Under the pieces are notes generated by a model that saw only the letters and a list, made by a program, of their open reading frames with translations, was not told the DNA's origin and did no database searches. This document shows positions 1 to 61,295 of a stretch of DNA of 64,000 nucleotides, piece by piece. The stretch covers positions 775,001-839,000 of the forward strand of contig BROG01000249.1 of the NCBI GenBank assembly GCA_030159075.1. Direction: 5' to 3'. Numbering within the stretch: the first letter of the stretch is position 1; each line of letters opens with the position of its first letter. The translations under genes were made by a program, and so were the position numbers. The stretch is from Atrina japonica (taxonomy: Eukaryota; Mollusca; Bivalvia; Pterioida; Pinnidae).

Positions 1-3000
1 ATCTTGTAAACTAGAGTCTATACCATCTGTACAAGATCTTGTAAACTAGAGTCTATACCACCTGTACAAGATCTTGTAGAGTCTATACCATCTGTACAAG
101 ATCTTGTAAACTAGAGTCTATACCATCTGTACAAGATCTTGTAAACTAGAGTCCATCATCTGTACAAGATCTTAAGAGTCTATACAATCCATACAATATC
201 TTGTAAACTAGAGTCCATACCACCTGTACAAGATCTTGTAAACTAGAGTCTATACAATCCATACAAGATCTTGTGAACTAGAGTCCATACCATCTGTACA
301 AGATCTTGTGAACTAGAGTCTATACCATCTGTACAAGATCTTGTAAACTAGAGTCTATACCATCTGTACAAGATCTTGTAAACTAGAGTCCATACCATCT
401 GTACAAGATCTTGTGAACTAGAGTCTATACAATCCATACAATATCTTGTAAACTAGAGTCCATACCACCTGTACAAGATCTTGTAAACTAGAGTCTATAC
501 AATCCATACAAGATCTTGTGAACAGAGTCCATACCATCTGTACAAGATCTTGTGAACTAGAGTCTATACAATCCATACAAGTTCTTGTAAACTAGATCTA
601 TACAATCCATACGATCTTGTAAACTAGAGTCTATACCACCTGTACAAGATCTTGTAAACTAAGTCTATACCATCTGTACAAGATCTTGTAAACTAGAGTC
701 TATACCATCTGTACAAGATCTTGTAAACTAAGTCCATACCATCTGTACAAATCTTGTGAACTAGAGTCTATACAATCCATCTGTAAACTAGAGTCCATAC
801 CACCTGTACAAGACTTGTAAAGAGTCTATACAATCCATAAAAGATCTTGTACAGAGTTTATACCTCTGTACAAGATCTTGTGAACTAGAGTCTATACCAT
901 CTGTACAAGATCTTGTAAACTAGAGTCTATACCATCTGTACAAGATCTTGTTGTCCATAACTGTACAAGATCTTGTGAACTCTATACAATCCATACAATA
1001 TCTTGTAAACTAGAGTCCATACCACCTGTACAAGATCTTGTAAACTAGAGTCTATACAATCCATACAAGATCTTGTGAACTAAGTCCATACCATCTGTAC
1101 AAGATCTTGTGAACTAGAGTCTATACAAGTTCTTGTCTAGAGTCTATACAATCCATACAAGATCTTGTAAACTAGAGTCCATACCAGCTGTACAATATCT
1201 TGTGAACTAAGCCCATACCATCTGTACTTGTAAACTAGAGTCCTACCATCTGTACAAGATCTTGTGAACTAAGTCCATACCACCTGTACAAGAACTTACT
1301 AGAGTCCATACCATCTGTACAAGATCTTGTAAACTAGAGTCCATACCATCTGTACAGAGTCTTGTGAACTAGAGTCCATACCACCTGTACAAGATCTTGT
1401 GAACTAGACCATACCACCTGTACAAGTCTTGTGAACTAGAGTATACCATCTGTACAATATCTTGTAAACTAGAGTCCATACCATCTGTACAAGATCTTGT
1501 AAACTGACCATCTGTACAAGATCTTGTAAACTAGAGTCCATACCATACAAGATCTTGTAAACTAAGACCATCTCATCCAATGAAGTCCTTTATAACAGAT
1601 CTTGTGACCTGTCTATACAATCCATACAAGATATTGTGAACTAGAATCTATACCATCTGTACAAGATCTTGTGAACTAGAGTCTATACTCCATACAAGAT
1701 CTTGTAAACTAGAGTCTATCCATCTGTACAAGATCTGTAAAACTAGAGTCTATATCATCTGTACAAGAACTTGTGAACTAGTCTATACAATCCATACAAG
1801 ATCTTGTAAACTAGAGTCTACCATCTACAAATCCTTGTAACAGAGTCCATCATCTGTACAAACTAAACTAGAGTCATATACAAGATCTTGTGAACTAGAG
1901 TACAATCCATACAAGATCTTGTAAACTAGAGTATATACCATTTGTACAAGATCTTGTAAACTAGAGTCTATCTTGTACAAGATCTTGTAAACTAGAGTCT
2001 ATACCATCTGTACAAGATCTTGTAAACTAGAGTCTATACCACCTGTACAAGATCTTGTAAACTAGAGTACAAGATCTTGTGAACTAGAGTCCATACCATC
2101 TGTACAAGATCTTGTGAACTAGAGTCTATACCATCCAAGATCTTGTAAACTAGAGTCTATACCATCTGTACAAGATCTTGTAAACTAGAGTCCATACCAT
2201 CTGTACAAGATCTTGTGAACTAGAGTCTATACAATCCATACAATATCTTGTAAACTAGAGTCATACCACCTGTACAAGAACTTGTAAAGAGAGTCTATAC
2301 AATCCATACAAGATCTGTGAACTAGAGTCCATACCATCTGTACAAGATCTTGTGAACTAGAGTCTATACAATCCATACAAGTTCTTGTAAACTAGAGTCT
2401 ATACAATCCATACAAGATCTTGTAAACTAGAGTCTATACCACCTGTACAAGATCTTGTAAACTAGAGTCTATACCATCTGTACAAGATCTTGTAAACAGA
2501 GTCTATACCATCTGTACAAGATCTTGTAAACTAGAGTCCATACCATCTGTACAAGATCTTGTAAACTAGAGTCTATACATCCATACCAATATCTTGTAAA
2601 CTAGAGTCCATCTGTACAAGATCTTGTAAACTAGAGTCCTATACCATCCATAAAAGATCTTGTGAACTAGAGTTTATACCATCTGTACAAGATCTTGTGA
2701 ACTAGAGTCTATACCATCTGTACAAGATCTTGTAAACTAGAGTCTATACCATCTGTACAAGATCTTGTAAACTAGAGTCCATACCATCTGTACAAGATCT
2801 TGTGAACTAGAGTCTATACAATCCATACAATATCTTGTAAACTAGAGTCCATACCACCTGTACAAGATCTTGTAAACTAGAGTCTATACAATCCATACAA
2901 GATCTTGTGAACTAGAGTCCATACCATCTGTACAAGATCTTGTGAACTAGAGTCTATACAATCCATACAAGTTCTTGTAAACTAGAGTCTATACAATCCA

Positions 3001-4755
3001 TACAAGATCTTGTAAACTAGAGTCTATACCAGCTGTACAATATCTTGTGAACTAGAGCCCATACCATCTGTACAAGATCTTGTAAACTAGAGTCCATACC
3101 ATCTGTACAAGATCTTGTGAACTAGAGTCCATACCACCTGTACAAGATCTTGTGAGAGTCCATACCATCTGTACAAGATCTTGTCTAGAGTCCAATACCA
3201 TCTGTACAAGATCTTGTGAACTAGAGTCCATACCACCTCAAGATCTTGTGAACTAGAGTCATACCATACAAGATCTTGTGAACTAGAGTCCATACCATCT
3301 GTACAATATCTTGTAAACTAGAGTCCATACCATCTGTACAAGATCTTGTAAACTAGAGTCTATACCATCTGTACAAGATCTTGTAAACTAGAGTCCATAC
3401 CATCTGTACAAGATCTTGTAAACTTAAGACCATCTCATCCAATGAAGTTCACTTTATAATCTCAGATCTTGTGAACTAGAGTCTATACAATCCATACAAG
3501 ATATTGTGAACTAGAATCTATACCATCTGTACAAGATCTTGTGAACTAGAGTCTATACAATCCATACAAGATCTTGTAAACTAGAGTCTATACCATCTGT
3601 ACAAGATCTTGTAAACTAGAGTCTATATCATCTGTACAAGATCTTGTGAACTAGTCTATACAATCCATACAAGATCTTGTAAACTAGAGTCTATACCATC
3701 TGTACAATATCCATAGAGTCCATACCATCTGTACAAGATCATGTAAACTAGAGTCCATACCATCTGTACAAGATCTTGTGAACTAGAGTCTATACAATCC
3801 ATACAAGATCTTGTAAACTAGAGTATATACCATTTGTACAAGATCTTGTAAACTAGAGTCTATACCACCTGTACAAGATCTTGTAAACTAGAGTCTATAC
3901 CATCTGTACAAGATCTTGTAAACTAGAGTCTATACCACCTGTACAAGATCTTGTAAACTAGAGTCTATACAATCCATACAAGATCTTGTGAACTAGAATC
4001 CATACCATCTGTACAAGATCTTGTAAACTAGAGTCTATACAATCCATACAAGGTCTTGTAAACTAGAGTCTATACAATCCATACAAGATCTTGTAAACTA
4101 GAGTCCATACCACCTGTACAAGATCTTGTGAACTAGAGTCCATACCACCTGTACAAGATCTTGTAAACTAGAGTCTATACAATCCATACAAGATCTTGTA
4201 AACTAGAGTCCATACCATCTGTACAAGATCTTGTGAACTAGAGTCCATACCACCTGTACAAGATCTTGTGAACTAGAGTCTATACAATCCATACAAGATC
4301 TTGTAAAGTAGAGTCCATACCATCTGTAGAAGATCTTGTAAACTAGAGTCCATACCATCTGTACAAGATCTTGTAAACTAGAGTCTATACCATCTGTACA
4401 AGATCTTGTAAACTAGAGTCCATACCATCTGTACAAGATCTTGTAAACTAGAGTCCATACCATCTGTACAAGATCTTGTGAACTAGAGTCCATACCACCT
4501 GTACAAGATCTTGTGAACTAGAGTCCATACCACCTGTACAAGATCTTGTGAACTAGAGTCCATACCATCTGTACAAGATCTTGTAAACTAGAGTCCATAC
4601 CATCTGTACAAGATCTTGTGAACTAGAGTCTATACAATCCATACAAGATCTTGTAAACTAGAGTTTATACCATCTGTACAAGATCTTGTAAACTAGAGTC
4701 CATACCATCTGTACAAGATCTTGTGAACTTAAGACCATCCCATCCATCCAAGATC
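1..4755. repeat. 35-bp satellite array with palindromic core
   Basis: About 130 tandem units of 35 bp fill this stretch and run off the left edge of the window. Each unit carries the perfect 12-bp palindrome acaagatcttgt, followed by aaactagagt or gaactagagt and a variable part (ctataccatctg, ccataccacctg or ctatacaatccat). Variants recur in a fixed order roughly every 590 bp, and a larger block of about 1.86 kb is repeated. Landmark variants at 1186, 1564, 1630 and 1931 recur at 3029, 3426, 3500 and 3823. The left block has many 1-12 base deletions that the right block lacks. The array lies in the second intron of the minus-strand cyclooxygenase gene. The short minus-strand ORF at 3087-3293 is a by-product of the repeat. 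Confidence 0.97.
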
Positions 4756-4849
4756 TTGAAAATTAGATTATGTGAGGACGACAGATTTTGCAACACTAAA
4801 ACTTTGGTATTTATAGTTTATACATATTTAAACCGCATTTCAACCAATC

Positions 4850-6425: not shown

Positions 6426-6736
6426 ATCCCAGTAAAATTTATAATTATGTAGATTGATTCATTAAGGTATCTTGTTCATAATCAAAATCTACTGTATAAC
6501 ATTAGGCAAGCTTTAAACAATTTCGATACCATGTTTGAATTTGTTTACTGGTTCATTTCAGCATTTTGCCTTTCTTTATGTCCAACAAAAAGTTGTTAAT
6601 CTCAGAATTAAAAAATTTCATCTCCCATAACAACTTAATGCAAATTAAAGGGATGTATTTGAATATATGTAAGTCATTTTTACTCAGTTCTATATTTATA
6701 GAATTGTAATTTGATGTTGTATTTCTTCATACTTAC

Positions 6737-6850
6737 GATTTTCACAGTGTTTTCCATGGAAATCTATGTGTGTACAGTCACAGTAATAGTTGTCTCCCTT
6801 AGTCATACATACACCATCATTCTCACATGGATATGAACAACATGGATTAC
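6737..6850 (-). CDS. PTGS: Prostaglandin G/H synthase, EGF-domain exon
   Basis: This 114-nt internal exon encodes the EGF-like module that begins mature cyclooxygenases, the ER-lumenal haem enzymes that convert arachidonate to prostaglandin H2. On the minus strand an acceptor (ttgtttcaag) precedes it and a donor (gtaagtatg) follows it. Both ends are phase 1, as is usual for EGF module exons. The translation starts [15 protein letters not shown] and continues to YYCDCT and GKHCEN. All seven cysteines of the family are at the expected spacing: CC, C, C, CxC, C. In vertebrate enzymes six of them pair within the module and one bridges to the catalytic domain. Vertebrate PTGS1/2 have the same NPCCSxPC opening. 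The following exon, with the membrane-binding helices, is not in the window. Whether this is orthologous to PTGS1 or PTGS2 cannot be decided; invertebrate genes are usually separate duplications. Confidence 0.93.
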
Positions 6851-7027
6851 CTTGAAACAAAATGAAAATTACAGTATTAATTAAACATGAACAATGATTC
6901 AGATAAGCTGTGTATTTGCAAATTTTACTCATAAAAATAAATGGCAATGCAAGCAATTTATAATTCATGCATAAGATACCCATCTCAAGTCAAATCTCAT
7001 TATCTGAGAAGTTAAACACTCTTGACC

Positions 7028-14454: not shown

Positions 14455-16287
14455 TGTGGAAGGTCTCTGTAGTGATGATTTATATCTGTAGTCTGAACAC
14501 AGTGGGAGGTCTCTGTAGTGACCATTTAGATCTGTAGTCTGAACACAGTGGGAGGTCTCTGTAGTGACCATTTAGATCTGTAGTCTGAACACAGTGGGAG
14601 GTCTCTGTAGTGACCATTTAGATCTGTAGTCTGAACACAGTGGGAGGTCTCTGTAGTGACCATTTAGATCTGTAGTCTGAACACAGTGGGAGGTCTCTGT
14701 AGTGACCATTTAGATCTGTAGTCTGAACACAGTGGGAGGTCTCTGTAGTGACCATTTAGATCTGTAGTCTGAACACAGTGGGAGGTCTCTGTAGTGACCA
14801 TTTAGATCACTGAGTGTGGAGGTCTCTGTAGTGACCATTTAGATCTGTAGTCTGAACACAGTGGGAGGTCTCTGTAGTGACCATTTAGATCTGTAGTCTG
14901 AACACAGTGGGAGGTCTCTGTAGTGACGAGTTAGATGTGTAGTCTGAACACAGTGGAAGGTCTCTGTAGCAATGATCTAGATGTGTAGTCTGAATACAGT
15001 GGATGGTCTCTGTAGTGATGAGTTAGATGTGCAGTCTGAACACAGTGTAAGGTCTCTGTAGCGATGAGTTAGATGTGCAGTCTGAACACAGTGGAAGGTC
15101 GTTGTAGCAATGAGTTAGATCTGCAGTCTGAACACAGTGGAAGGTCTCTGTAGCGATGAGTTAGATCTGCAGTGTGAACACAGTGGAAGGTCGTTGTAGC
15201 AATGAGTTAGATCTGCAGTCTGAACACAGTGGAAGGTCTCTGTAGCAATGTGTTAGATCTGTAGTCTGAACACAGTGGAAGGTCTCTGTAGCGATGAGTT
15301 AGATCTGCAGTCTGAACACAGTGGAAGGTCGTTGTAGCAATGAGTTAGATCTGCAGTCTGAACACAGTGGAAGGTCTCTGTAGCGATGAGTTAGATCTGC
15401 AGTGTGAACACAGTGGAAGGTCTCTGTAGCAATGAGTTAGATCTGTAGTCTGAACACAGTGGAAGGTCTCTGTAGCGATGAGTTAGATCTGTAGTCTGAA
15501 CACAGTGGAAGGTCTCTGTAGCGATGAGTTAGATGTGTAGTCTGAACACAGTGGAAGGTCTCTGTAGTGATGAGTTAGATCTGCAGTTTGAACACAGTGG
15601 AAGGTCTCTGTAGCAATGAGTTAGATCTGTAGTCTGAACACAGTGGAAGGTCTCTGTAGCGATGAGTTAGATCTGTAGTCTGAACACAGTGGAAGGTCTC
15701 TGTAGCGATGAGTTAGATGTGCAGTCTGAACACAGTGGAAGGTCTCTGTAGTGATGAGTTAGATCTGCAGTTTGAACACAGTGGAAGGTCTCTGTAGTGA
15801 TGAGTTAGATCTGCAGTATGAACACAGTGGATGGTCTCTGTAGTGATGATCTAGATGTGCAGTCTGAACACAGTGGAAGGTCTCTGTAGCAATGTGTTAG
15901 ATCTGTAGTCTGAACACAGTGGAAGGTCTCTGTAGCAATGTGTTAAATCTGTAGTCTGAACACAGTGGAAGGTCTCTGTAGCAATGTGTTAGATCTGTAG
16001 TCTGAACACAGTGGAAGGTATCTGTAGCAATGTGTTAGATCTGTAGTCTGAACACAGTGGGAGGTCTCTGTAGTGATGATCTAGATGTGCAGTCTGAACA
16101 CAGTGGGAGGTCTCTGTAGCGATGAGTTAGATCTGCAGTCTGAACACAGTGGAAGGTCTCTGTAGTGATGATCTAGATGTGCAGTCTGAACACAGTGGTA
16201 GGTCTCTGTAGCAATCTGTTGGATCTGTAGTCTGAATACAGTGGAAGGTCTCCCTGTGGAAGGTCTCTGTAGTAATGATTTGGATCT
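14455..16287. repeat. 46-bp minisatellite, ~40 units
   Basis: Each unit contains gtctgaacacagtggaaggt followed by ctctgtag and a variable segment. Two subfamilies are segregated. The left third (14515-14905) is nearly uniform and carries gtgaccatttagatctgtag. The rest carries gcgatgagttagatctgcag and related forms, with higher-order repetition. The right end decays into taatgatttggatctat. Minus-strand frames here (for example 16081-16311) are by-products of the array. Confidence 0.97.
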
Positions 16288-18727: not shown

Positions 18728-20403
18728 GACAGTTCTCTATGTCAGAGTTCTTTATGACAGAGTTCTTTATGACAGTTCTCTATGACAAAGTTCTTTATGA
18801 CAGTTCTTTATGACACTTCTCTATGACAGAGTTCTTTAGGACAGAGTTCTTTATGATAGTTCTTTATGACAGTTCTTTATGACAGTTCTCTATGACAGAG
18901 TTCTTTATGACAGAGTTCTTTATGACAGTTCTTTATGACAGTTGTCTTTGACAGAGTTCTTTATGACAGAGTTCTTTATGACAGTTCTTTATGATAGTTC
19001 TCTATGACAGAATTCTTTATGACAGAGTTCTTTATGACAGAGTTCTTTTTGACAGTTCTCTATGACAGATTTCTTTATACAAGTTCTTTATGACAGTGCT
19101 CTATGACAGAGTTCTTTATGACAGTTCTTTATGACAGTTCTCTATGACAGAGTTCTTTATGACAGTGTTCTTTATGACAGTTCTCTATGACAGAGTTCTT
19201 TATGACAGAGTTCTTTATGACAGTACTCTATGACAGTTCTTTATGACAGTTCCTTATGACACAGCTCTTTATGACAGTTCTTTATGACAGAGTTCTTTAT
19301 GATAGTTCTTTATGACAGTTCTTTATGACAGTTCTCTATGACAGAGTTCTTTATGACAGAGTTCTTTATGACAGTTCTTTATGACAGTTCTCTTTGACAG
19401 AGTTCTTTATGACATAGTTCTTTATGACAGTTCTTTATGATAGTTCTCTATGACAGAATTCTTTATAACAATGTTCTTTATGACAGAGTTCTTTATGACA
19501 GTTCTTGATGACAGAGTTCTTTATGACAGAGTTCTTTATGACAGTTCTTTATGACAGTTCTCTGAGAGTTCTTTATGACAATACTCTATGACAGAGTTCT
19601 TTATGACAGTTCTCTATGACAAAGTTCTTTATGACATAGTTCTTTATGACAGAGTTCTTTTTGACAGTTATCTATGACAGAGTTCTTTATGACAGAGTTC
19701 TTTATGACAGTTCTCTATGACAGAGTTCTTTATGACAGTTCTTTATGACAGTTCTCTATGACATAGTTCTTTATGACAGTTCTTTATGACAGTTCTCTAT
19801 GACAGAGTTCTTTATGATAGAGTTCTTTATGACAGAGTTCTTTTTGACAGTTCTTTATGACAGAGTTCTTTATGACAGTTTTTTATGACAGTTCTCTATG
19901 ACAGAGTTCTTTATGACAGAGTTCTTTATGACAGTTCTCTATGACAGAGTTCTTTATGACAGTTCTTTATGACAGTTCTCAATGACAGAGTTCTTTATGA
20001 CAGTTCTCTATGACAGAGTTCTTTATGACAGAGTTCTTTATGACAGTTCTCTATGACAGAGTTCTTTGTGACAGTTCTCTATGACAGAGTTCTTTATGAC
20101 AGTTCTTTATGACAGTTCTTTATGACAGAGTTCTTTATGACAGTTCTCTATGACAGAGTTCTTTATGACAGAGTTCTTTATGACAGTTCTCTATGACAGA
20201 GTTCTTTATGACAGAGTTCTTTATGACAGTTCTTTATGACAGAGTTCTCTATGACAGAGTTCTTTATGACAGTTCTCTATGACAGAGTTCTCTATGACAG
20301 AGTTCTTTATGACAGTTCTCTATGACAGAGTTCTTTATGACAGAGTTCTTTATGATGGTTCTCTATGACAGAGTTCCTTATGACATTATGACAGAGTTTT
20401 TTA
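18728..20403. repeat. 13/15-bp minisatellite array
   Basis: More than 110 short units of the form agttctttatgacag or agttctctatgacagag alternate in irregular order, giving 28-44 bp higher-order patterns. The array ends about 200 bp downstream (in gene sense) of the signal-peptide exon, so it sits at the very start of cyclooxygenase intron 1. Confidence 0.97.
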
Positions 20404-45436: not shown

Positions 45437-46530
45437 TGGAATATGGTATCTAGCTATAGCATACCCAGAGGGACTCTTTGAATATGGTATCTTATCTAGC
45501 TATAGCATACCCAGAGGGACTCTTTGAATATGGTATCTTATCTAGCTATAGCATACCTAGAGGGACTCTTTGAATATGGTATCTAGCTATAGCATACCCA
45601 GAGGGACTCTTTGAATATGGTATCTAGCTATAGCATACCCAGAGGGACTCTTTGAATATGGTATCTAGCTATAGCATACCCAGAGGGACTCTTTGAATAT
45701 GGTATCTTATCTAGCTATAGCATACCTAGAGGGACTCTTTGAATATGGTATCTAGCTATAGCATACCCAGAGGGACTCTTTGAATATGGTATCTAGCTAT
45801 AGCATACCCAGAGGGACTCTTTGAATATGGTATCTAGCTATAGCATACCCAGAGGGACTCTTTGAATATGGTATCTAGCTATAGCATACCCAGAGGGACT
45901 CTTTGAATATGGTATCTAGCTATAGCATACCCAGAGGGACTCTTTGAATATGGTATCTTATCTAGCTATAGCATACCCAGAGGGACTCTTTGAATATGGT
46001 ATCTAGCTATAGCATACCCAGAGGGACTCTTTGAATATGGTATCTAGCTATAGCATACCCAGAGGGACTCTTTGAATATGGTATCTAGCTATAGCATACC
46101 CAGAGGGACTCTTTGAATATGGGTATCTAGCTATAGCATACCCAGAGGGACTCTTTGAATATGGTATCTAGCTATAGCATACCCAGAGGGACTCTTTGAA
46201 TATGGTATCTAGCTATAGCATACCCAGAGGGACTCTTTGAATATGGTATCTAGCTATAGCATACCCAGAGGGACTCTTTGAATATGGTATCTAGCTATAG
46301 CATACCCAGAGGGACTCTTTGAATATGGTATCTAGCTATAGCATACCCAGAGGGACTCTTTGAATATGGTATCTAGCTATAGCATACCCCAGAGGGACTC
46401 TTTGAATATGGTATCTAGCTATAGCATACCCAGAGGGACTCTTTGAATATGGTATCTAGCTATAGCATACCCAGAGGGACTCTTTGAATATGGTATCTAG
46501 CTATAGCATACCCAGAGGGACTCTTTGAAT
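45437..46530. repeat. 41-bp minisatellite, ~26 units, very homogeneous
   Basis: Units contain tatggtatctagctatagca and tacccagagggactctttga. Four units near 45487, 45536, 45701 and 45952 carry a 5-bp insertion (atcttatctagc), and two of those also have acctag for acccag. Otherwise units are nearly identical, differing by single extra bases near 46116 and 46386. Each unit includes the palindrome gctatagc. Confidence 0.98.
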
Positions 46531-48861: not shown

Positions 48862-48968
48862 GTAGTATTAAATGTGTAGTAATGTTTTGGAGGTGGGACA
48901 GCAAAAAACTTCAGACAACAGCTCCTGTTTATCATACCATTGTTAGATTGAGAAAATGTTTACAATGA

Positions 48969-49351
48969 TGTTAATACAAAGTGCTATAATCTTGGTTTCA
49001 CTGTCAGTGTATTTAATTTGGAGTAAACACATTAATCTTGATTAAAATTCTAAAGTGTTCTGCTGAAGACTGTTAAGATAACAGCTATGTGACATTTGCT
49101 TGACCATAGTTTTATATCAGATAAACATTTGATTTACTTCTTTTTACCTCAATTCATCTGTTCTCTTTGTCTCTATTTTATATAATTACAACTTGATCGT
49201 GTACATTAAGTTAGTTTGCAAGTTGGGCTCGTACTGTATAGTTCACATGTGTATATGTATCTTCTATTATATAAAGTGTTGAAAAAGGTTTTCCTAGTCG
49301 AAGTTAGTGTTTTGAAACTCAGTAATTTGGAGAAAAGAACTCACGGTAACA
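48969..49351 (+). repeat. 5' LTR
   Basis: 383 bp, beginning tgttaatac and ending ggtaaca, so it has TG...CA ends. A tatataaag at 49267-49275 is the likely LTR promoter TATA box. It lacks about 10 bases (around ccagacgag) present in the 3' LTR. Confidence 0.95.
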
Positions 49352-49355
49352 ATTT

Positions 49356-49373
49356 TGGTGGCAGCGGTGGGAT
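49356..49373 (+). promoter_or_regulatory. Primer-binding site
   Basis: tggtggcagcggtgggat begins four bases after the LTR. It starts with the TGG complementary to a tRNA CCA end. Its complement, atcccaccgctgccacca, looks like a tRNA-Leu acceptor and T-arm end. The tRNA identity is from memory of leucine tRNAs and should be checked. Confidence 0.8.
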
Positions 49374-49548
49374 TATGTTCTGTTAGAAGATAGAGAAGTA
49401 TCATATAGTGTTGATACTTAACTGACTTTATTTTGCTTTGGATTCAAAGATTTAAAGTGCAGTTGACTTGATATTATTGATATCATTGTGTGATAGTGAA
49501 TATACTGGAGCCCAGGATAAATTACTGAGTTTATGTTAATGTTTTAAT

Positions 49549-50466
49549 ATGGAGTCACAGGTCGAATCAGAACGCTCTCAAAGAAGTCTGATAGAATTTA
49601 CAGAAGAGGAGGATGTTGAGTATGAAGGTCAAAGGGACATTATGCCACCCTCCTAGAGGAAAAGCTAGGAAAACAAAGAAAGATAAGGATCTTGAGATTC
49701 AACAAAAAGAAATTGAATTAAAATTAGAACAGCAGAGAGACTTGATTTTGAACGTGAAAAAATTGAAAATGGAACACAGCCTAGAAATGAAAAAAATAGA
49801 ATATGAAATGGCAAAATTAAAGCCAGACTTCAAGAACATCAGAAGCCGTATCCATTCCATTTAAATTAAAATTACAAACTTTTTGATTACCTGAAGGAGG
49901 ACACTGAATTTGAGGCAGTCGCTAAACAAGCCAACTGGAATGATGAATTGAAAGTTTTTACAATTAAGGACACTACTAACAGTGAAGCAAGACAAGTTGC
50001 GACACAAAGCTTGTAATGACTACACAGAATTAAGGAGAGGTTTGATTGACAGATTTGGAAAGCGACCACATGAACATTTTTCTATGCTTCTAGATGTAAA
50101 AATGACAAACGATGAAAACATACAGAGGACTAATGGCACGAATTGACCTAACACATCACAAGATTTTTTAGATAATAGGATCCAACTTTGTGCTTACGAG
50201 AGGAATTTTTCCTAAAGGCATTACCTTCAGAGCAAGCTCAGTGGATAAGAAGAAACAAAGGGTCAAGTTCAGTTGTTGCGGCTGCCGAGGATTACATTCA
50301 CCCTATCTCAGACACATCAAAACCCAAATCCATTGGCAGTAATGTCAAACAAAACTAATACCCCACTGGTACAAAATAATTTCTCTAACCGAAAGAACGA
50401 GGCCTCAGGAGTATCAAACAAGCGCTGTTTTTATTGTAAAAAGCTAGGACATATTCAAACTATTTA
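49549..50466 (+). pseudogene. gag: gag remnant with zinc knuckle
   Basis: The likely start at 49549 (MESQVESERSQ) is broken after about 35 codons. Another frame continues with a Lys/Glu-rich, coiled-coil-like stretch (about 49655-49850). Further fragments in shifting frames carry the capsid-like region (for example RGLIDRFGKRP near 50035). It ends in a zinc knuckle, CFYCKKLGH, at about 50425-50455, whose fourth ligand is missing because of a stop or frameshift. Gag would form the particle and bind genomic RNA. At least four frame changes are needed to read it. Confidence 0.8.
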
Positions 50467-50509
50467 GAAAACACAATAACAACAGTAACAGAAATCAAGC
50501 GTCATATCT

Positions 50510-50738
50510 TGTTAAGCCAACAATAGGTGAGCGCCTTATTTGTGAAGCAGGTTATGTCAATGGGAGAGAGATCATGTTTGTTAAGGATACAGGATCTGCC
50601 ATGACACTGATTCGAAAGGATTTAGTGGACGATAGATGTAGTGCTGGGAAGGGTCATGAAGTAACATTATATACTGCAGTTGGACAGCCCTTTGTAGCTG
50701 AACTGGCAGTTGTTGAAATTGATACCTTAAAACTTTAA
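50510..50738 (+). pseudogene. Retroviral-type aspartic protease remnant
   Basis: A frame carrying VKDTGSAMTLIRKDLV around 50580-50630 has the catalytic D-T-G of retropepsins, preceded by a short beta-strand-like region. The frame stops at 50738 (LKL*). It would process the polyprotein. It is short for a retropepsin (usually about 100-120 residues), so the C-terminal part may be lost or shifted. Confidence 0.75.
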
Positions 50739-50841
50739 GGGGACTACAATACAGTTGAAGAACAAGACAGTACTGAGAATGAAAATACCAATATTGAGCT
50801 ACTTGAACTTTCAGGCGTAAACGCTGATAAAATTATCAAGG

Positions 50842-52050
50842 ATGCAAGAGGCAGATAGCTCGCTGCAAAGTGTAAGGGATAAAGCTTACATGAGTAAAGA
50901 TGAAGCCGAGAATGAGAAAAATGCATTTTATTGGGAGAACAATATTTTGCGCAGAAAATGGGCTTCAGAGAATAAGATGAAGCATGGGCAACAGATAGTG
51001 ATACCATCAAAGTTACGAGCTTCAATTATGAAGTTGGCACATGATCAACCTCTATCAGGGCATTTAGGACTGGAAAAGACAAAAGAACGAATCCTGCAGT
51101 CGTTTTATTGGCCTGAATATTTTCAGATGTGAAAAAGCACTGTACAGCTTGTCATGAGTGTCAGGTGGACAGCAAAGAAAACGCCCGAATGAAAAAGCAG
51201 CACCGATGATATGTCCACCTATCATAACAGAGCCATTTTCTAAAATAGCAATGGATATTGTAGGACCACTCTCAAGGACAAAATCTGGACATAAATACAT
51301 TCTAACTATCATCGATGACGCAAACGCGATATCCAGAAGCCATTGCATTAAAAGATATAGAGGCTAGAAGTGTAGCAAATGCGCTGATGAAACTTTTCAG
51401 TCAAGTGGGTATACCAAAGGTTATTCTAACTGATCAGGGGACCAACTTTTACCAGTACACTAATGAAACAGTTTTACAGCTTGATGGGTGTACATGGAAT
51501 TACAGCTTCACACATATCACCCACAAACAAATGGCAAAGTGGAAAGATTCCAATGGAACATTGAAATCAATGCTGAAAAAAGGCCTGTGTGCTGCTAATG
51601 AGAATGAATGGGATGAACTATTGCCTTATGTGTTATTTGCCACATCGTGAAGTTCCTCATGAGGAAACAGGATTTTCTCCATTTTGAAATGTTATATGGA
51701 TGGCCTGTGCGTGGACCGATGAGAATTTTACAAGGTCTATTTGAAGGTGACGAGGATGTTAGGAAGTCACCGTGGATCATATAGTGGGTATTCGTGAGAA
51801 ATTGAAAGAAATTAGTGAGTTCGTTAAAGACAATTTGTCAAATCGTCGTCAGAAGGTTAAGACTTGGTATGACCGCCATAGTACTAAGCGTGTATTTAAC
51901 CCAGGAGATGAAGTGTTGATACTACTTCCATCTAATGCTGCAAAGATGCAAGCACATTGGCAGGGACCATACCGTGTGGTTCGACGAGTTAAACAATGTT
52001 AACTATGAAGTGTATGTACCAGGAAGGCAATGTTGTTTACCACATAAATT
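50842..52050 (+). pseudogene. Integrase remnant with HHCC, core and GPY module
   Basis: From left to right there is an HHCC zinc domain (AHDQPLSGHLG near 51040, CTACHECQ near 51140). It is followed by the catalytic core, with MDIVGPL near 51253 (first acidic residue) and ILTDQGTNF near 51425 (second). The region expected to carry the third, the glutamate, is in a shifted frame near 51535. The C-terminal module has FNPGDEVLILLP and HWQGPYRVVRRV near 51895-51990, the GPY/F signature of Ty3/gypsy integrases. At least five frame breaks occur. It lies upstream of reverse transcriptase, which is the diagnostic oddity of this element. Confidence 0.88.
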
Positions 52051-53060
52051 TTGTTTGAGAGAGTACAAGAGAAAATGTACTCTTGGCTGTATTTGCCGAT
52101 GACCAGGATAACACATGCAATGAAATCAAGTGATGTTGAAAGTGTGAGATTTGGGCCTGAATTAACAAAACAACAGCGAGATCAACTTAGGAATCTCTGT
52201 TCTGAGTTTGAGGATGTATTGACATCAAAACCAGGAAAAACTAATTTAGTTACACACAGCATAAAAACTACAACAGAAAATCCAATATGCCAACGCCCAT
52301 ACAGGATTCCATATGCACAACAAAAAGAGGTTCAGGAATCCCTAGATGAAATGCTAGAGCAGGGACTAATTCGACCCTCAAAGAGTCCATGGAGTTCCCC
52401 GTGCGTACTCGTTACAAAGAAGGATGGAACATTAATTGTGTGTAACTACAGGAAGTTAAATAGCATAACATTTATTTGATGGCATATCCGATGTCACGTA
52501 TTGATGATCTTTTTGAAAAGATAGCTGAGGCAAATACTTAAGTTGCATGGATATGACAAAAGGATATTGGCAGGTACCGCTTGCTAATGATTCTCATAAA
52601 ATCTGCATTTGTGACACCCCTTTGGTCTCTATGAATTTGAAGTTATGCCATGGAATGAAAACTCACCTGCAACATTTTCGCGCGTTTGATGGATCTATTA
52701 CTCTCAGGTCTCAAAAACACTGTTGCTTACTTTGATGACATCATTGTTTATAGTAACACGTGGGAAGAGCATATCCAGGATCTCGGATTAGTATTTCAGC
52801 GTTTGCGAGAAGAAAATGTCACTATCAAACCGTCAAAAAATGTGAACTGGGAGCGAATGAAATAAAATGTCTGGGGTCATGTAATAGGCAATGGAAAGGT
52901 TAAAAAACAGATGATAGTAAAATTAAAGCTATGCTTGAATTCCCTCTGCCTACAACGAAAAAGGGAATCCGATCATTCTTGGGAATGACAGGCTATTATC
53001 GCAAATTCATTAAGGAATATGCAATGTTAGCTGCACCACTCATAAGAAAGGTAGCCCAAA
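52051..53060 (+). pseudogene. Reverse transcriptase remnant
   Basis: The best-preserved frame (52051-52479) ends with LIRPSKSPWSSPCVLVTKKD and then NYRKLNS, classic gypsy fingers/palm motifs. After a frameshift come MDMTKGYWQVPL (52547 on), the active-site YFDD at 52728-52739, and IRSFLGMTGYYRKFI near 52969-53013. The enzyme would copy the RNA in the particle. Breaks lie near 52480, 52540, 52610, 52720 and 52865. All catalytic motifs are still visible, so decay or error is mostly by indel. Confidence 0.9.
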
Positions 53061-53099
53061 CAAAGATATTTGGACTGAAAATGCAGTAAAGGCTTTCAA

Positions 53100-53528
53100 G
53101 TTACTAAAAGAAGTCACTTACAAGGGCGCCTGTACTTATTTCACCACAGTTTGATAAAACCGTTTTATTCAAACCGATGCAAGTGACATAGCAATTGGAG
53201 CTGTTTTGAGTAGATCATTGATGGAGAAGAACATGCTATTGCTTATTTGAGTCGGAAACTTCTGCCACGTGAACAGAAATTATGCAACTGTGGAAAAGGA
53301 ATGTCTTGGTATTATTTGGGGCAATAGAGTCACTGAGAAAAATATATTTTTGGGTCAACTTTCAAGGTCATCACTGATCATATAACCCATTGACTTGTAT
53401 TAAATCAAGTGAAGGACAAAAACCAACGTTTACTGAGATGGTCACTCGCACTTCAACCATATGACTTTACTATTGAACATAGAAATGGGAAGTGTAACGC
53501 GAACGCGGATGGATTGTCAAGGATGTGA
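53100..53528 (+). pseudogene. RNase H remnant, end of pol
   Basis: Fragments in several frames carry RNase H landmarks: a TDASD-like segment near 53175, ATVEKECLGI near 53286, and the terminal LRWSLALQPYDFTIEHRNGK followed by NADGLSRM and a stop at 53526-53528. The 'NxxADxLSR' ending is the usual C-terminus of gypsy pol when RNase H is last, which confirms that integrase does not follow. 53529-53777 is non-coding up to the polypurine tract. Confidence 0.88.
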
Positions 53529-53777
53529 TGTGTTATGTGTTAAAAAGAGTGATGGTACCCTTAAAGTGTATTGATACAAAACTCTGATAGTTTTATTCGT
53601 GGATTTATTTACTTAAACTGTTATAATTGACTGTTTAAGTGAAATATGAACTTTATTCTTACAAGAAAATGGACATTAAGCTTTATGCAATCTTAAGCGT
53701 TACGCACATTTGTATTTCTATTGTGTTAGTGAGCCAACCTTTGATTTTGAAAAATTATATACATAAGTTTTTCTCTT

Positions 53778-53788
53778 AAGAGGGGAGG
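53778..53788 (+). promoter_or_regulatory. Polypurine tract
   Basis: aagaggggagg lies immediately before the TG of the 3' LTR, as needed for plus-strand priming. Confidence 0.92.
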
Positions 53789-54180
53789 TGTTATACAAAA
53801 GTGCTATAATCTTGGTGTCACTGTCAGTGTATCCAGACGAGTTTAAATTGGAGTAACACATTAATCTTGATTAAATTCTAAAGTGTTCTGCTGAAGACTG
53901 TTAAGATAACAGCTATGTGACATTTGCTTGACCATATAGTTTATCAGATAAACATTTGATTTACTTCTTTTTACCTCAATTCATCTGTTCTCTTTGTCTC
54001 TATTTTATATAATTACAACTTGATCGTGTACATTAAGTTAGTTTTGCAAGGTTGGGCTCGTACTGTATAGTTCACATGTGTATATGTATCTTCTATTATA
54101 TAAAGTGTTGAAAAAGGTTTTCCTAGTCGAGGTTAGTGTTTTGAAACTCAGTAATTTGGAGAAAAGAACTCATGGTAACA
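53789..54180 (+). repeat. 3' LTR
   Basis: 392 bp, beginning tgttatac and ending ggtaaca, followed by the aatga target duplication. By eye there are about three clear substitutions against the 5' LTR but seven or eight small length differences. Confidence 0.95.
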
Positions 54181-54284
54181 AATGAGAATTTATATCATGT
54201 TTGTTATGTGTTTTCAGAACTATTTTACACACATAGTTGAATAACCACCTGGGACATTTTGCCCACCCTGAATCCACCTCTGAG

Positions 54285-54955
54285 TCGATCTGATCAAAAA
54301 ACATAAACTTGGTAGGGGACTTGGATACTGTACTTGTTTCCTTTATCCTTCAGCAGTTTTGAAGAACAAGCTGAGAGTGTGAAAAAATGTCCCCTCCTTC
54401 TTTTTGCAGGTTTAAAAATTCATAAAAAATTCAAAAAAATAAATTTCAGCAAAAAAGACATCAAAAATGTGTCAAAAATTTATTTTCCGATTTTTATGAA
54501 ATTAACAAACTTCAATCATACATCTTTGTAGATTACTCAGAAATAATTAATTTTTCAATCCATGCAGCGGTTCTGGTGAAGAAGATTTTTAAAGAGGGGT
54601 ACCCCCCCGGGGCCTCCTTTGCCCCACCATGGATCAACGCCTTGGCCGAACTGGTCGAAATGAACAAACTTGGTAGAGGACCTTTAGTACTTGCTTCCAA
54701 TAAAGTTTCATCCAGCCATTTTTGAGGAAATGATTTTTAAAGTGGGGTACCCCCTGTGGCCTTTTTTTGGGGCCTCCAGCTGGATTTACTTCTGGCCAAT
54801 CTGGCAGAAATTAACAAACTTGGTAGAGAACCTTGAGTACTGTGTAAAATGTGAAAAGTTAACAGACAGACAGACAGACAGACAGACCGACAGACGATGG
54901 GGCAAAAGGTGATCAGAAAAGCTAACTTGAACTTTCAATTCAGGTTAGCTAAAAA
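54285..54955 (+). repeat. Interspersed repeat with 'caggttagctaaaa' terminus, copy 3
   Basis: Related to 31066-31853. It shares gcagcggttctggtgaagaa, the aacaaacttggtagaggacc modules (two tandem versions at 54585-54700 and 54725-54845) and the end aattcaggttagctaaaa. An (acag)n tract is at 54860-54895. The frames inside (54334-54531, 54691-54912) are repeat-derived. Confidence 0.8.
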
Positions 54956-56830: not shown

Positions 56831-57754
56831 CTTGACCTGAAATTACCAAATTTACTCATTCCTAAAGCCCATGTTTTTTAACATTATTTGATTATGAAGA
56901 TTTAATTTTCTGTAAAACTTCTGGATGCAAATGAACAGAAAACACTTAATTTTTTTGTTTCATTTACATCATAAACATGAATTTGGGTCAAATCTATAAT
57001 TTTCCCTTTAAATTGGAAAATACCACAATTAAGAAACTCTAAATTTGAGTATGTAATTAAACTATTTTATATTTCCCAAGTTTTCATCAAATGAGCAATT
57101 ATTTTCATCTTTATTTACACATGTAATAACCATTCAAAAATACCCTAATGCAGAATACAATTCTGTGTTTTCACCAATAAAAAGTCATTTGAGCTTGAGT
57201 ACTGTGTGTTGGCTTTGGGTCCTGTAGAATTTGAATGTGGGGAAGAGCACTGAGAAAAAAAAAACAAATTATTTCAGATAAGAGATCAGATCATCAAAAG
57301 AGAAGAATAAAGATCTTAAGTTACATTACTAAAATAACTACAGGCTATTTGAAGTATATACATGTTATTTTATTTGCTTTGGTCAACAGCTTGAGATAAT
57401 GTATAAATACTTTATGTTATAAAACCTTCATACAAACTTCTGCCGGTGGCTATTGTCACAACCAAAGTTGGAATTCAAAATAACAGGTGAAAGTGTTATG
57501 ATTGTGAAGATCCGAATAAAATTTGACCACAACTAACATTGTGACATAACTGGTCATGGATTGTAAATATCTTGATAACCAAATTTACTATCAATAGATT
57601 AAATCAGAAGTCTTCTATTCAGCCAAAATCTGATAAAAACAGAGGTGGTAATTCATATAGACTTTTTTAACCAAAATTACAAGTGTTAACCAAGGGTGTT
57701 AAAAACCCATTACAATCAATCTAAGGCAGTAGTTATGGAATATTATTAAAACAT
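56831..57754. other. Non-coding stretch
   Basis: AT-rich. No gene, array or transposon end recognised. Confidence 0.5.
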
Positions 57755-58640
57755 GTACATATAAACAGGTGTTATCTAGGATATGTACCTACAGACAGGT
57801 GTTATCTAGGATATGTACATATATACAGGTGTTATCTAGAAAATGTACATATAAACAGGTGTTATCTAGGATATGTACCTATACACAGGTGCTATCTAGG
57901 AAATGTACATATAAACAGGTGTTATCTAGGATATGTACATATAGACAGGTGCTATCTAGGAAATGTACATATAGACATGGTTCTATCTAAGAAATGTACA
58001 TATAGACAGATGCTATCTAGGAAATGTAAATATAGATAGGTACTATCTAGGAAATGTATATATAGACAGGTGCTATCTAGAAAATGTACTTATAGACAGG
58101 TTCTATCTAGGATATGTACATATAGACAGGTGTTATCTAGGAAATGTACATATAAACAGGTGTTATCTTGGAAATGTACATATAGACAGGTGCTATCTAG
58201 GATATGTATATATAGACAGGTGTTATCTACGATATGTACATATAAACAGGTGTTATCTAGGAAATGTACATATAGACAGGTGCTATCTAGAAAATGTACA
58301 TATAAACAGGTGTTATCTAGGATATGTACCTATAGACAGGTGTTATCTAGGAAATGTACATATAGACAGGTGCTATCTAGAAAATGTACATATAGACAGG
58401 TGCTATCTAGAAAATGTACATATAAACAGGTGTTATCTAGGATATGTACCTATAGACAGGTGTTATCTAGGATATGTACATATAGACCATGTGTTATCTA
58501 GAAAATGTACATATCGACAGGTGTTATCTAGGATATGTACATATAGACAGGTGCTATCTAGGAAATGTACATATAGACAGGTCCTATCTAGAAAATTTAC
58601 TTATAGACTGGTTCTATCTTAAAAATGTACATACCGTACC
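57755..58640. repeat. 30-bp minisatellite, ~29 units
   Basis: Units read gtgctatctaggaaatgtac followed by atatagacag, with common variants gtgttatctaggatatgtac and atataaacag. The 30-bp period holds a 10-residue frame open (VLSRKCTYRQ), producing 73- and 143-residue ORFs. I do not regard these as genes. Variant order suggests block duplications (58261-58350 resembles 58381-58470). Confidence 0.97.
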
Positions 58641-58699: not shown

Positions 58700-60355
58700 A
58701 TGCACTTGTTAATTTGGTGTTCTGGATTGTCTTTAGTTACACAGGGGGATTTGGCCCCAATGCACATGGTAATCTGTACTGTTCTGGTTTGTTTTTAGTT
58801 ACACACAGGACAGAAGGTGCCTCCAATGAACATGCTAATTTGTACTGTTTTGGTTTATTTTTAGTTACCCACAGGGCAGGGGTTCCCCCAATGAACATGT
58901 TAATTTGTACTGTTTTGGTTTATTTTTAGTTACACACAGGGCAGGGGAAACCTCCAATGAACATATTAATTTTGTGCTCTGGTTTGTTTTTAATTTTGTG
59001 CTCTGGTTTGTTTTTAGTTACACACAGGCAGGGGGTATCTCCAATGAACATGTTAATTTGGTGCTCTGGTTTGTCTTTAGTTACACACAGGGCGGGGGAT
59101 ACCTCCAGTGAACATGTTAATCTGTACTGTTCTGATTTGTTTTTAGTTATACACAGGGCGGGGGATACCTCCAGTGAACATGTTAATCTGTACTGTTCTG
59201 ATTTGTTTTTAGTTATACATAGGGCGGGGGATACCTCCAGTGAACATGTTAATCTGTACTGTTCTGATTTGTTTTTAGTTATACACAGGTTGGGGGATAC
59301 CTCCAGTGAACATGTTAATCTGTACTGTTCTGGTTTGTTTTTAGTTATACACAGGGCGGGGGAAACCTCCAGTGAACATGTTAATCTGTACTGTTCTGAT
59401 TTGTTTTTAGTTATACACAGGGCGGGGGGATACCTCCAGTGAACATGTTAATCTGTACTGTTCTGATTTGTTTTTAGTTATACACAGGGCGGGGGATACC
59501 TCCAGTGAACATGTTAATCTGTACTGTTCTGATTTGTTTTTAGTTATACACAGGGCAGGGGATACCTCCAGTGAACATGTTAATCTGTACTGTTCTGATT
59601 TGTTTTTTAGTTATACACAGGGCGGGGGGATACCTCCAGTGAACATGTTAATCTGTACTGTTCTGATTTGTTTTTAGTTATACATAGGGCGGGGGATACC
59701 TCCAGTGAACATGTTAATCTGTACTGTTCTGATTTGTTTTTAGTTTTACACAGGTTGGGGGATACCTCCAGTGAACATGTTAATCTGTACTGTTCTGGTT
59801 TGTTTTTAGTTATACACAGGGCGGGGGGAAACCTCCAGTGAACATGTTAATCTGTACTGTTCTGATTTGTTTTTAGTTATACACAGGGCGGGGGATACCT
59901 CCAGTGAACATGTTAATCTGTACTGTTCTGATTTGTTTTTAGTTATACACAGGGCGGGGGAAACCTCCAGTGAACATGTTAATCTGTACTGTTCTGATTT
60001 GTTTTTAGTTATACATAGGGCGGGGATTTATCCACCAAGTGAACATGTTATATCTGTACTGTTTTGATTTGTTTTTTAGTTATACACAGGGCAGGGGATA
60101 CCTCCAGTGAACATGTTAATCTGTACTGTTCTGATTTGTTTTTAGTTATACACAGGGCGGGGAAAACCTCCAGTGAACATGTTAATCTGTACTGCTCTGG
60201 TTTGTTTTTAGTTATACACAGGGCGGGGGATACCTCCAGTGAACATGTTAATCTGTACTGTTCTGATTTGTTTTTAGTTATACACAGGGCGGGGGATACC
60301 TCCAGTGAACATGTTAATCTGTACTGTTCTGGTTTGTTTTTTAGTTACACACAGG
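58700..60355 (+). repeat. 66-bp minisatellite, ~25 units, acceptor-like motif in each
   Basis: Units contain cctccagtgaacatgttaat, ctgtactgttctgatttgtt and tttagttatacacagggcgg. Each has a tttgtttttag that resembles a vertebrate-type splice acceptor. The first units (58700-59095) are more diverged and intermediate with the neighbouring 61-bp family. The 66-bp period gives a 22-residue open frame (DTSSEHVNLYCSDLFLVIHR), broken wherever a unit gains or loses a base. I found no start, signal or domain, so it is treated as non-coding. Confidence 0.96.
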
Positions 60356-61210
60356 GCACATCTTGATTTGGTGTTTTTATTTGTATTTAGTTGCACACAG
60401 AGGGATTTAGCCCCAACACACGTTTATTTGGTGTTTTATTTGTATTTAGTTGCACACAGAGGGATTTAGCCCCAACACACATGTTTATTTGGTGTTTTAT
60501 TTGTATTTAGTTGCACACAGAGGGATTTAGCCCCAACACACATGTTTATTTGCCCCAACACAGAATGACACATGTGTTTTATTTGTATTTAGTTGCACAC
60601 AGAGGGATTTAGCCCCAACACACATGTTTATTTGGTGTTTTATTTGTATTTAGTTGCACCACAGAGGGATTTAGCCCCAACACACATGTTTATTTGGTGG
60701 TGTTTTATTTGTATTTAGTTGCACACAGAGGGATTTAGCCCCAACACACATGTTTATTTGGTGTTTTTATTTGTATTTAGTTGCACACAGAGGGATTTAG
60801 CCCCAACACACGTTTATTTGGTGTTTTATTTGTATTTAGTTGCACACAGAGGGATTTTAGCCCCAACACACATGTTTATTTGGTGTTTTATTTGTATTTA
60901 GTTGCACACAGAGGGATTTAGCCCCAACACACATGTTTATTTGGTGTTTTATTTGTATTTAGTTGCACACAGAGGGATTTAGCCCCAACACACATGTTTA
61001 TTTGGTGTTTTATTTGTATTTAGTTGCACACAGAGGGATTTAGCCCCAACACACATGTTTATTTGGTGTTTTATTTGTATTTAGTTGCACACAGAGGGAT
61101 TTAGCAGAGGGATTTAGCCCCAACACACATGTTTATTTGGTGTTTTTATTTGTATTTAGTTGCACACAGAGGGATTTAGCCCCAACACACATGTTTATTT
61201 GGTGTTTTAT
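60356..61210 (+). repeat. 61-bp minisatellite, ~14 units
   Basis: Units contain gttgcacacagagggattta, gccccaacacacatgtttat and ttggtgttttatttgtattt. It is homologous to the 66-bp family: 58735-58770 reads gttacacagggggatttggc then cccaatgcacatgg, a clear intermediate. One unit at 60550-60600 and one at 61100 are rearranged. Confidence 0.96.
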
Positions 61211-61295
61211 TTTTGTCATATTTACCTCTTAACTTTATCTTTCCTTATGACTTTGAATGAAATAGCTAATGAGTATTTATATAAAGCAAAATTCT

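What the first reader, a model, noticed from the sequence alone, without database searches (positions are those of the whole stretch)
48969..54180. Ty3/gypsy-type retrotransposon with copia-like pol order (Gmr1-like) in a mollusc
The HHCC/core/GPY integrase (50842-52050) lies before reverse transcriptase (YFDD at 52728) and RNase H, whose NADGLSR-type ending closes pol at 53528. The LTRs, PBS, PPT and 5-bp aatga duplication are all in place. The order gag-PR-INT-RT-RH within a gypsy-type element is the defining trait of the Gmr1 group, first known from fish and other deuterostomes. A protostome member with a complete structure would be useful for dating the rearrangement.
Basis: partly seen in the sequence, partly recalled or inferred. 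Interest (0 to 1): 0.78.

Follow-up and report, generated by a model that had tools for sequence, protein, structure and literature searches.

The report
Integrase-first gypsy retrotransposon, probably in bivalve
This is one damaged copy of a recently active jumping gene whose integrase gene sits in front of its reverse transcriptase gene instead of behind it; that unusual layout is a known one (the Gmr1 type), and related elements occur in bivalves and in other animals.

Summary
Window 48969-54180 is one LTR retrotransposon: LTRs 48969-49351 and 53789-54180 (TG...CA), 5-bp AATGA duplication, PBS, PPT, and order gag-PR-INT-RT-RH, with gypsy-type domains and no copia-model matches. It is neither misassembly nor chimera: 16 of 16 further copies fetched from the same 832-Mb assembly keep the order (one lacks most of INT), and uninterrupted natural frames join PR to INT, INT to RT, and RT to RH. 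RT and INT trees agree: one branch splits 33 integrase-first rows from 12 canonical rows of the same genome (RT 100/98, INT 99/97). The family groups with bivalve proteins (Sinanodonta, Pinctada), which supports but does not prove a mollusc host. The window copy's frames are broken, with more indel events than substitutions. Novelty is modest: Gmr1-type elements are published for crustaceans (PMC3587641) and an annelid (PMC8220671), and bivalve, urchin, vertebrate and probably sponge proteins of this order are in databases. The order therefore probably predates the protostome-deuterostome split. Gmr1 itself was not available for comparison.

The parts
48964..48968 (.). target site duplication AATGA, left
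   Evidence: chance 0.0019
48969..49351 (+). 5' LTR, 383 bp, TGTTAA...GTAACA
49356..49373 (+). primer binding site TGGTGGCAGCGGTGGGAT, 4 bases after the LTR; complementary to a tRNA-Leu 3' end by recall only
   Evidence: sequence; tRNA assignment recalled, genome test did not complete
49540..50467 (+). gag region, broken frames; CX2CX4H at 50426 hints at a zinc knuckle
   Evidence: zf-CCHC only E 0.029; the full CX2CX4HX4C pattern was not found in the 662-aa frame of copy L012
50448..50735 (+). aspartic protease piece, DTG at 50586
   Evidence: (PF13975 3.5e-4, below cut-off); 4e-5 in copy L012
50821..51209 (+). integrase HHCC zinc domain (two frames)
   Evidence: PF17921 2.7e-12 and 0.0091; Ty3 1071-1130; P0002 63% identity
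51158..51650 (+). integrase catalytic core; D near 51254, D near 51432, E near 51542
   Evidence: D35E spacing counted in an unbroken frame of another copy
51763..52050 (+). integrase C-terminal GPY module (QGPYRVVRR at 51961)
   Evidence: in another copy Pfam Integrase_p58_C 8.6e-8 and SH3_Tf2-1 9.5e-6
52048..53086 (+). reverse transcriptase, YFDD at 52728
53108..53528 (+). RNase H, ends NADGLSR then M and stop at 53526-53528
   Evidence: RT-RNase H in one frame in another copy
53778..53788 (+). polypurine tract AAGAGGGGAGG
53789..54180 (+). 3' LTR, 392 bp, TGTTAT...GTAACA
54181..54185 (.). target site duplication AATGA, right

Best explanation
The window holds one frame-broken copy of a young, multi-copy Ty3/gypsy LTR retrotransposon family whose pol runs protease-integrase-reverse transcriptase-RNase H, i.e. 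the Gmr1-type order. The family belongs to an integrase-first lineage in which RT and INT have evolved together, and its closest named relatives are in bivalves. It presumably moves as LTR retrotransposons do: transcription from the LTR, tRNA-primed reverse transcription from the PBS, plus-strand priming at the PPT, and integration by the DD35E integrase with a 5-bp duplication. The anatomy, the duplication and the recent copying are shown; the enzymology is inferred from the family.
For: Anatomy. Same order in 16 of 16 further copies fetched, one of them (L025) without the integrase zinc domain and core. Uninterrupted natural frames: PR-H2C2-rve in 662 aa and RT-RNase H in 372 aa, H2C2-rve-C-terminal module-RT in 643 aa. 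LTR pairs differ by 0 substitutions in 4, 1 in 3, 2 in 4 and 4 in 3 (the window among these) of 16 copies measured, and by 17 and 23 in the last two; 11 of 16 show an exact 5-bp duplication, the 11 sequences all different. 120 of 120 listed homologues have INT before RT (the query was itself INT-RT, so this sample is biased). Trees: 33 integrase-first rows against 12 canonical rows are one branch, RT 100/98 and INT 99/97; the window family sits in the same 7-row clade with Sinanodonta and Pinctada in the RT tree (99/97) and the INT tree (100/100).
Against: No Gmr1, Osvaldo, Mag or CsRn1 reference was in the trees. With 6 canonical rows the INT split had weaker support (89/93). Above the 7-row clade the two trees differ: RT joins it to a 9-row clade of Solemya and own-genome elements (97/92), INT puts that 9-row clade with frogs and a turtle instead (84/83, not starred). 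LTR ends match the published rGmr1 motifs (PMC3601003, passages read) incompletely: GGTAACA against CGTNACA (6 of 7), TGTTAAT against TGTNANR for the 5' LTR (6 of 7; the 3' LTR start TGTTATA fits). None of the 16 copies measured has an unbroken gag-pol (longest stop-free stretch 662 aa), so present activity is not shown.
Confidence: 0.94

Rival explanations
1. Misassembly, or two nested or tandem canonical elements, produced an apparent integrase-first order.
For: The window copy has many indels and broken frames, so its local sequence quality is doubtful.
Against: 16 of 16 other copies fetched have the same order, with 10 different target duplications among them; INT and RT share one uninterrupted natural frame; nine relatives examined have INT before RT in single proteins; no LTR match lies between INT and RT.
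Confidence: 0.01
2. A chimera: a gypsy-type RT joined recently to an integrase from another lineage.
For: The order itself is unusual, and PMC3601003 (passages read) discusses separate acquisitions of integrase for copia and rGmr1.
Against: INT and RT trees place the family in the same bivalve-containing clade and both separate integrase-first from canonical rows.
Confidence: 0.03
3. A second, independent origin of the integrase-first order, outside the Gmr1 clade proper.
For: Gmr1 itself was not in the trees; much of the branching inside the integrase-first group is weak.
Against: Fish, frog, turtle, urchin, sponge-like and bivalve integrase-first rows lie on one side of one branch against 12 canonical rows in both trees; PMC3601003 (passages read) calls the rGmr1 order unique among Metaviridae.
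Confidence: 0.08
4. The window copy's indels are natural decay rather than sequence error.
For: Longest stop-free stretch only 143 aa. Against other copies the window also has somewhat more substitutions in the RT (10.7 against 7.6 per kb) and LTR pieces (7.7 against 3.2). Some copies (L023, L025) do look old, with 17 and 23 LTR substitutions.
Against: Its own LTRs differ by 4 substitutions against 9 gap events. In the INT piece it has 3.8 substitutions but 14.6 gap events per kb, in the RT piece 21.3 gap events, while the others show 4.9-5.9 gap events.
Confidence: 0.25

Closest known systems
Gmr1 (rGmr1) clade of Ty3/gypsy, named for an element of the cod Gadus morhua
   Same: gypsy-type RT, RNase H and integrase with PR-INT-RT-RH order; one branch holds it together with fish integrase-first proteins
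   Different: Gmr1 itself not compared; tetraodontiform 'Gmr' elements are 6.1-6.5 kb (PMC11117352, table passage) against mostly 5.3-5.4 kb here; LTR end motifs fit incompletely
Integrase-first proteins of bivalves in public databases (Sinanodonta woodiana P0004, Pinctada imbricata P0008)
   Same: INT-RT order and same supported clade in both trees; 63% and 52% identity to the family's 643-aa frame
   Different: deposited as hypothetical, integrase-domain or reverse transcriptase proteins (names), not described as Gmr1 in anything I found
Gmr1-like elements of crustaceans (GyRex4 and three others) and LGF3 of the annelid Lamellibrachia luymesi
   Same: protostome members assigned to the Gmr1 clade by RT/RH (crustaceans) and by RT, RH and INT trees (annelid) (PMC3587641, PMC8220671, passages)
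   Different: other phyla; for the shrimp R. exoculata the RT/RH and INT pieces do not overlap, so their linkage was not shown there
Canonical Ty3/gypsy elements of the same genome (e.g. L057, L059)
   Same: homologous RT, RNase H and integrase
   Different: RT-RH-INT order; separate side of the tree
Ty1/copia
   Same: domain order only
   Different: no copia-type RT or pre-integrase model among the matches; the matched models are gypsy-type

Membership tests
Ty3/gypsy (Metaviridae) | RT, RNase H and integrase of gypsy type | tested here: met
   RVT_1, RT_RNaseH, Integrase_H2C2, rve; best solved relative Ty3 or its RT
Gmr1 clade | integrase upstream of RT in a gypsy-type element | tested here: met
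   window pieces against Ty3 coordinates; 16 of 16 further copies; single frame
Gmr1 clade | RT and INT group with Gmr1 reference elements | tested here: inconclusive
   groups with fish, frog, turtle, urchin, sponge-like and bivalve integrase-first proteins against 12 canonical rows; Gmr1 itself not available
Gmr1 clade | LTR end motifs TGTNANR and CGTNACA (PMC3601003, modelled on fish) | tested here: inconclusive
   6 of 7 at the 3' end, 6 (5' LTR) or 7 (3' LTR) of 7 at the 5' end; motifs are short
Ty1/copia | copia-type RT and pre-integrase domains | tested here: not met
   no such family among the matches
Mag, CsRn1 and other canonical gypsy clades | integrase downstream of RNase H | tested here: not met
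Chromoviruses | chromodomain after the integrase core (some members lack it) | tested here: not met
   no chromodomain among matches (E up to 0.01) of the 643-aa frame, which contains the integrase C-terminus
Mollusc host | host is a mollusc | tested here: inconclusive
   nearest named relatives are bivalves; PF14830 no match, but controls silent too

The most novel reading that the evidence does not exclude
The integrase-first gypsy order arose once, before protostomes and deuterostomes split and perhaps before sponges branched off, has been inherited as a joined INT-RT unit ever since, and survives as at least four distinct lineages inside one bivalve-like genome. The large mollusc survey of 2018 (PMC6238403, passages read) lists 21 gypsy clades, none called Gmr1, so the lineage may have been overlooked there or filed under MolGy names, because RT/RNase H trees do not show domain order.
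Probability: 0.55. Interest if true: 0.45.

Novelty: new member of a known kind. Interest (0 to 1): 0.35.

Why it matters
It adds a well-bounded, multi-copy and probably molluscan family to the integrase-first gypsy elements and shows that the rearrangement is not a deuterostome peculiarity. Because RT and INT agree on one split and representatives reach from a probable sponge protein to vertebrates, the question of when the order arose can be tested with data already public. It also suggests that mollusc surveys may have missed this lineage or filed it under other names.

Tried and rejected
Scans for relatives in viral contigs with window pieces and alignments confirmed none, nor did genome contigs. 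Short RT and INT pieces found one protein each; only an uninterrupted 643-aa frame of another copy opened the family. The primer tRNA was looked for by pattern: one exact hit in a viral contig without a tRNA call, and the own-genome search did not complete, so tRNA-Leu stays recalled. Haemocyanin as a mollusc marker was uninformative. ARAGORN and Rfam found nothing in the window. Troyka (PMC12440569, outline and abstract only) was set aside: it has CG...CG ends and 3-bp duplications. PMC7998251 and PMC2577118 (passages) gave nothing on this order beyond references. Misassembly, chimera and nested insertion were considered and rejected.

Results against my reading, limits and dropped rows: INT split only 89/93 with 6 canonical rows; RT and INT trees differ, without strong INT support, on the neighbour of the 7-row clade; the 643-aa query favours INT-RT hits, and only 120 of 2,962 hits were listed. 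Of 150 scored integrase places 30 were checked for order, with a query from a probably integrase-first relative: RT downstream in 25 (11 of them the window family), upstream in 0, undetected in 5; L054 among the 25 also has integrase matches on the other strand. Of 14 loci fetched as canonical candidates 12 were canonical and 2 undetermined; one of those, L077, later proved to have RT matches downstream of INT. In the trees, 22 of the 120 listed proteins and 10 of the 19 other-family loci were the integrase-first rows; 5 more own loci, given no order group, entered only the INT tree, and L048, L049, L054 and L055 entered none. The indel comparison used 12 of the 16 further copies. On checking, I raised the odds of natural decay of the window copy from 0.20 to 0.25, because its RT and LTR pieces also carry more substitutions than the other copies.
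Full report
What is there. The element spans 48969-54180 (5,212 bp). LTRs of 383 and 392 bp begin TG and end CA and are flanked by AATGA on both sides; an equal 5-mer at that spacing occurs at 0.19% of window positions. A PBS-like stretch starts 4 bases after the 5' LTR and a polypurine tract abuts the 3' LTR. Searching the broken reading-frame pieces one at a time gives, from left to right, aspartic protease, integrase zinc domain, integrase core, RT and RNase H; the GPY module is read as a motif. The zinc domain and one RT piece pass Pfam's cut-offs; the other pieces match below them. Against Ty3 in the PDB, the integrase piece matches residues 1071-1130 while the RT pieces downstream of it match 594-848: the order is the reverse of Ty3's. 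No copia model is among the matches.

Is it real and general? The assembly (832,074,514 bases, 2,347 contigs; window = C249:775001-839000) holds 17 places matching an RT probe, the window among them, and at least 40 LTR matches (40 scored of 77 candidates). I fetched 16 further copies. All 16 run LTR-gag-PR-INT-RT-RH-LTR in a blastn map, except that L025 lacks the integrase zinc domain and core. Of 16 copies with both LTRs measured (window included, L024 not measured), 11 have exact 5-bp duplications, all different, and 11 have 0-2 LTR substitutions: separate, mostly recent insertions. None of the 16 has an unbroken gag-pol; the longest stop-free stretches are 662 and 643 aa. Used as they stand, these and a 372-aa frame carry PR-H2C2-rve, H2C2-rve-C-terminal module-RT, and RT-RNase H, and the integrase has D35E spacing. 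Together they document the order from protease to RNase H in natural frames.

State of the window copy. Its LTR pair shows 4 substitutions and 9 gap events. Compared with 12 other copies, its INT piece has 3.8 substitutions and 14.6 gap events per kb, its RT piece 10.7 and 21.3, its 3' LTR piece 7.7 and 8.5; the others among themselves have 6.8 and 5.9, 7.6 and 4.9, 3.2 and 5.5. The excess of indels points to local assembly error more than to age, but the window also has more substitutions in two of the three pieces, and reads would be needed. In two other-family loci of the same assembly (L051, L052) one frame is open over the whole fetched 3.3 kb and holds INT core and RT (open frames 1,435 and 1,477 aa), so such errors are not everywhere.

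Relatives. The 643-aa frame found 2,962 proteins, of which 120 were listed; in 120 of 120 the integrase lies before RT, a sample biased by the query. Named sources include the bivalves Sinanodonta woodiana, Pinctada imbricata and Solemya velum, sea urchins, fish, frogs and a turtle; one EukProt entry (Em...) is, by recall of its prefix, a freshwater sponge. Pfam confirms PR-INT-RT in the Pinctada protein and INT-RT-RNase H in the urchin, fish and sponge-like ones.

Trees. Among integrase-first sequences alone (54 INT and 52 RT rows) the family sits in a clade with SH-aLRT 99 that holds Sinanodonta and Pinctada in both. With canonical elements of the same genome added: 6 canonical rows gave 89/93 (INT) and 96/97 (RT) for the split; without the long row L061, 100/100 for both; 12 canonical rows gave 99/97 (INT) and 100/98 (RT). 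The 7-row clade with the window family is the same in both trees; its neighbour differs, without strong support in the INT tree. The integrase-first rows of this genome fall into four lineages: the window family; one with Solemya (L038, L039, L040, L051); one with L045, L050, L052, L053; and one with L043 and L046. The split is unrooted, so it fits one change of order but does not show its direction.

Literature. Gmr1's order is stated in PMC2582038, PMC2774666 and PMC3601003 (passages read). [quoted passage not shown] PMC8556966 (passages) lists Gmr1 among clades present in several phyla. The mollusc survey PMC6238403 (passages, Table 1 included) lists 21 gypsy clades, none named Gmr1. My searches of the held library (some listings capped, such as 20 of 170 and 20 of 37) showed no description of a mollusc Gmr1 element, but the library lacks most subscription journals. 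The founding Gmr1 papers were seen only as references.

Host. Bivalve kinship of the element and of a second family of the genome (with Solemya) makes a bivalve likely. The window also carries an EGF-like exon at 6699-6989 (minus) resembling prostaglandin synthase, which fits an animal. The haemocyanin search gave nothing and its controls were silent. I put 'mollusc' at about 0.85 by inference.

Verdict. What remains useful is the single-split signal across animals, and the hint that mollusc surveys may have missed this lineage or named it otherwise.

Noticed in passing
window 6699-6989 (minus): EGF-like exon resembling the start of prostaglandin G/H synthase (best single stretch, E 9.5e-10 to a COX-2 chain; neurexin scores more only summed over three EGF repeats); suggests an animal cyclooxygenase gene nearby.
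   Followed up: partly
window 1-4767, 14456-16252, 18731-20385, 45439-46530, 57753-58633, 59002-61212: Many minisatellite arrays: 82 tandem repeat rows, several above 1 kb with units of 15-66 bases.
   Followed up: no
L038-L040, L043, L045, L046, L050-L053: Three further integrase-first gypsy lineages in the same genome; in L051 and L052 one frame is open over the whole 3.3-kb locus.
   Followed up: partly
P0091 (Solemya velum protein), residues 896-933: A WAP four-disulfide domain follows RNase H in an integrase-first protein; may be a gene-model fusion or a captured domain.
   Followed up: no
L025: A diverged copy with protease and RT but no integrase zinc domain or core; possibly an internal deletion.
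   Followed up: no
L054: Integrase matches on both strands within 3.3 kb, possibly nested elements.
   Followed up: no
window 54257-54320 and 54618-54681: Two 64-base repeats 72% alike just downstream of the element, perhaps part of another repeat.
   Followed up: no
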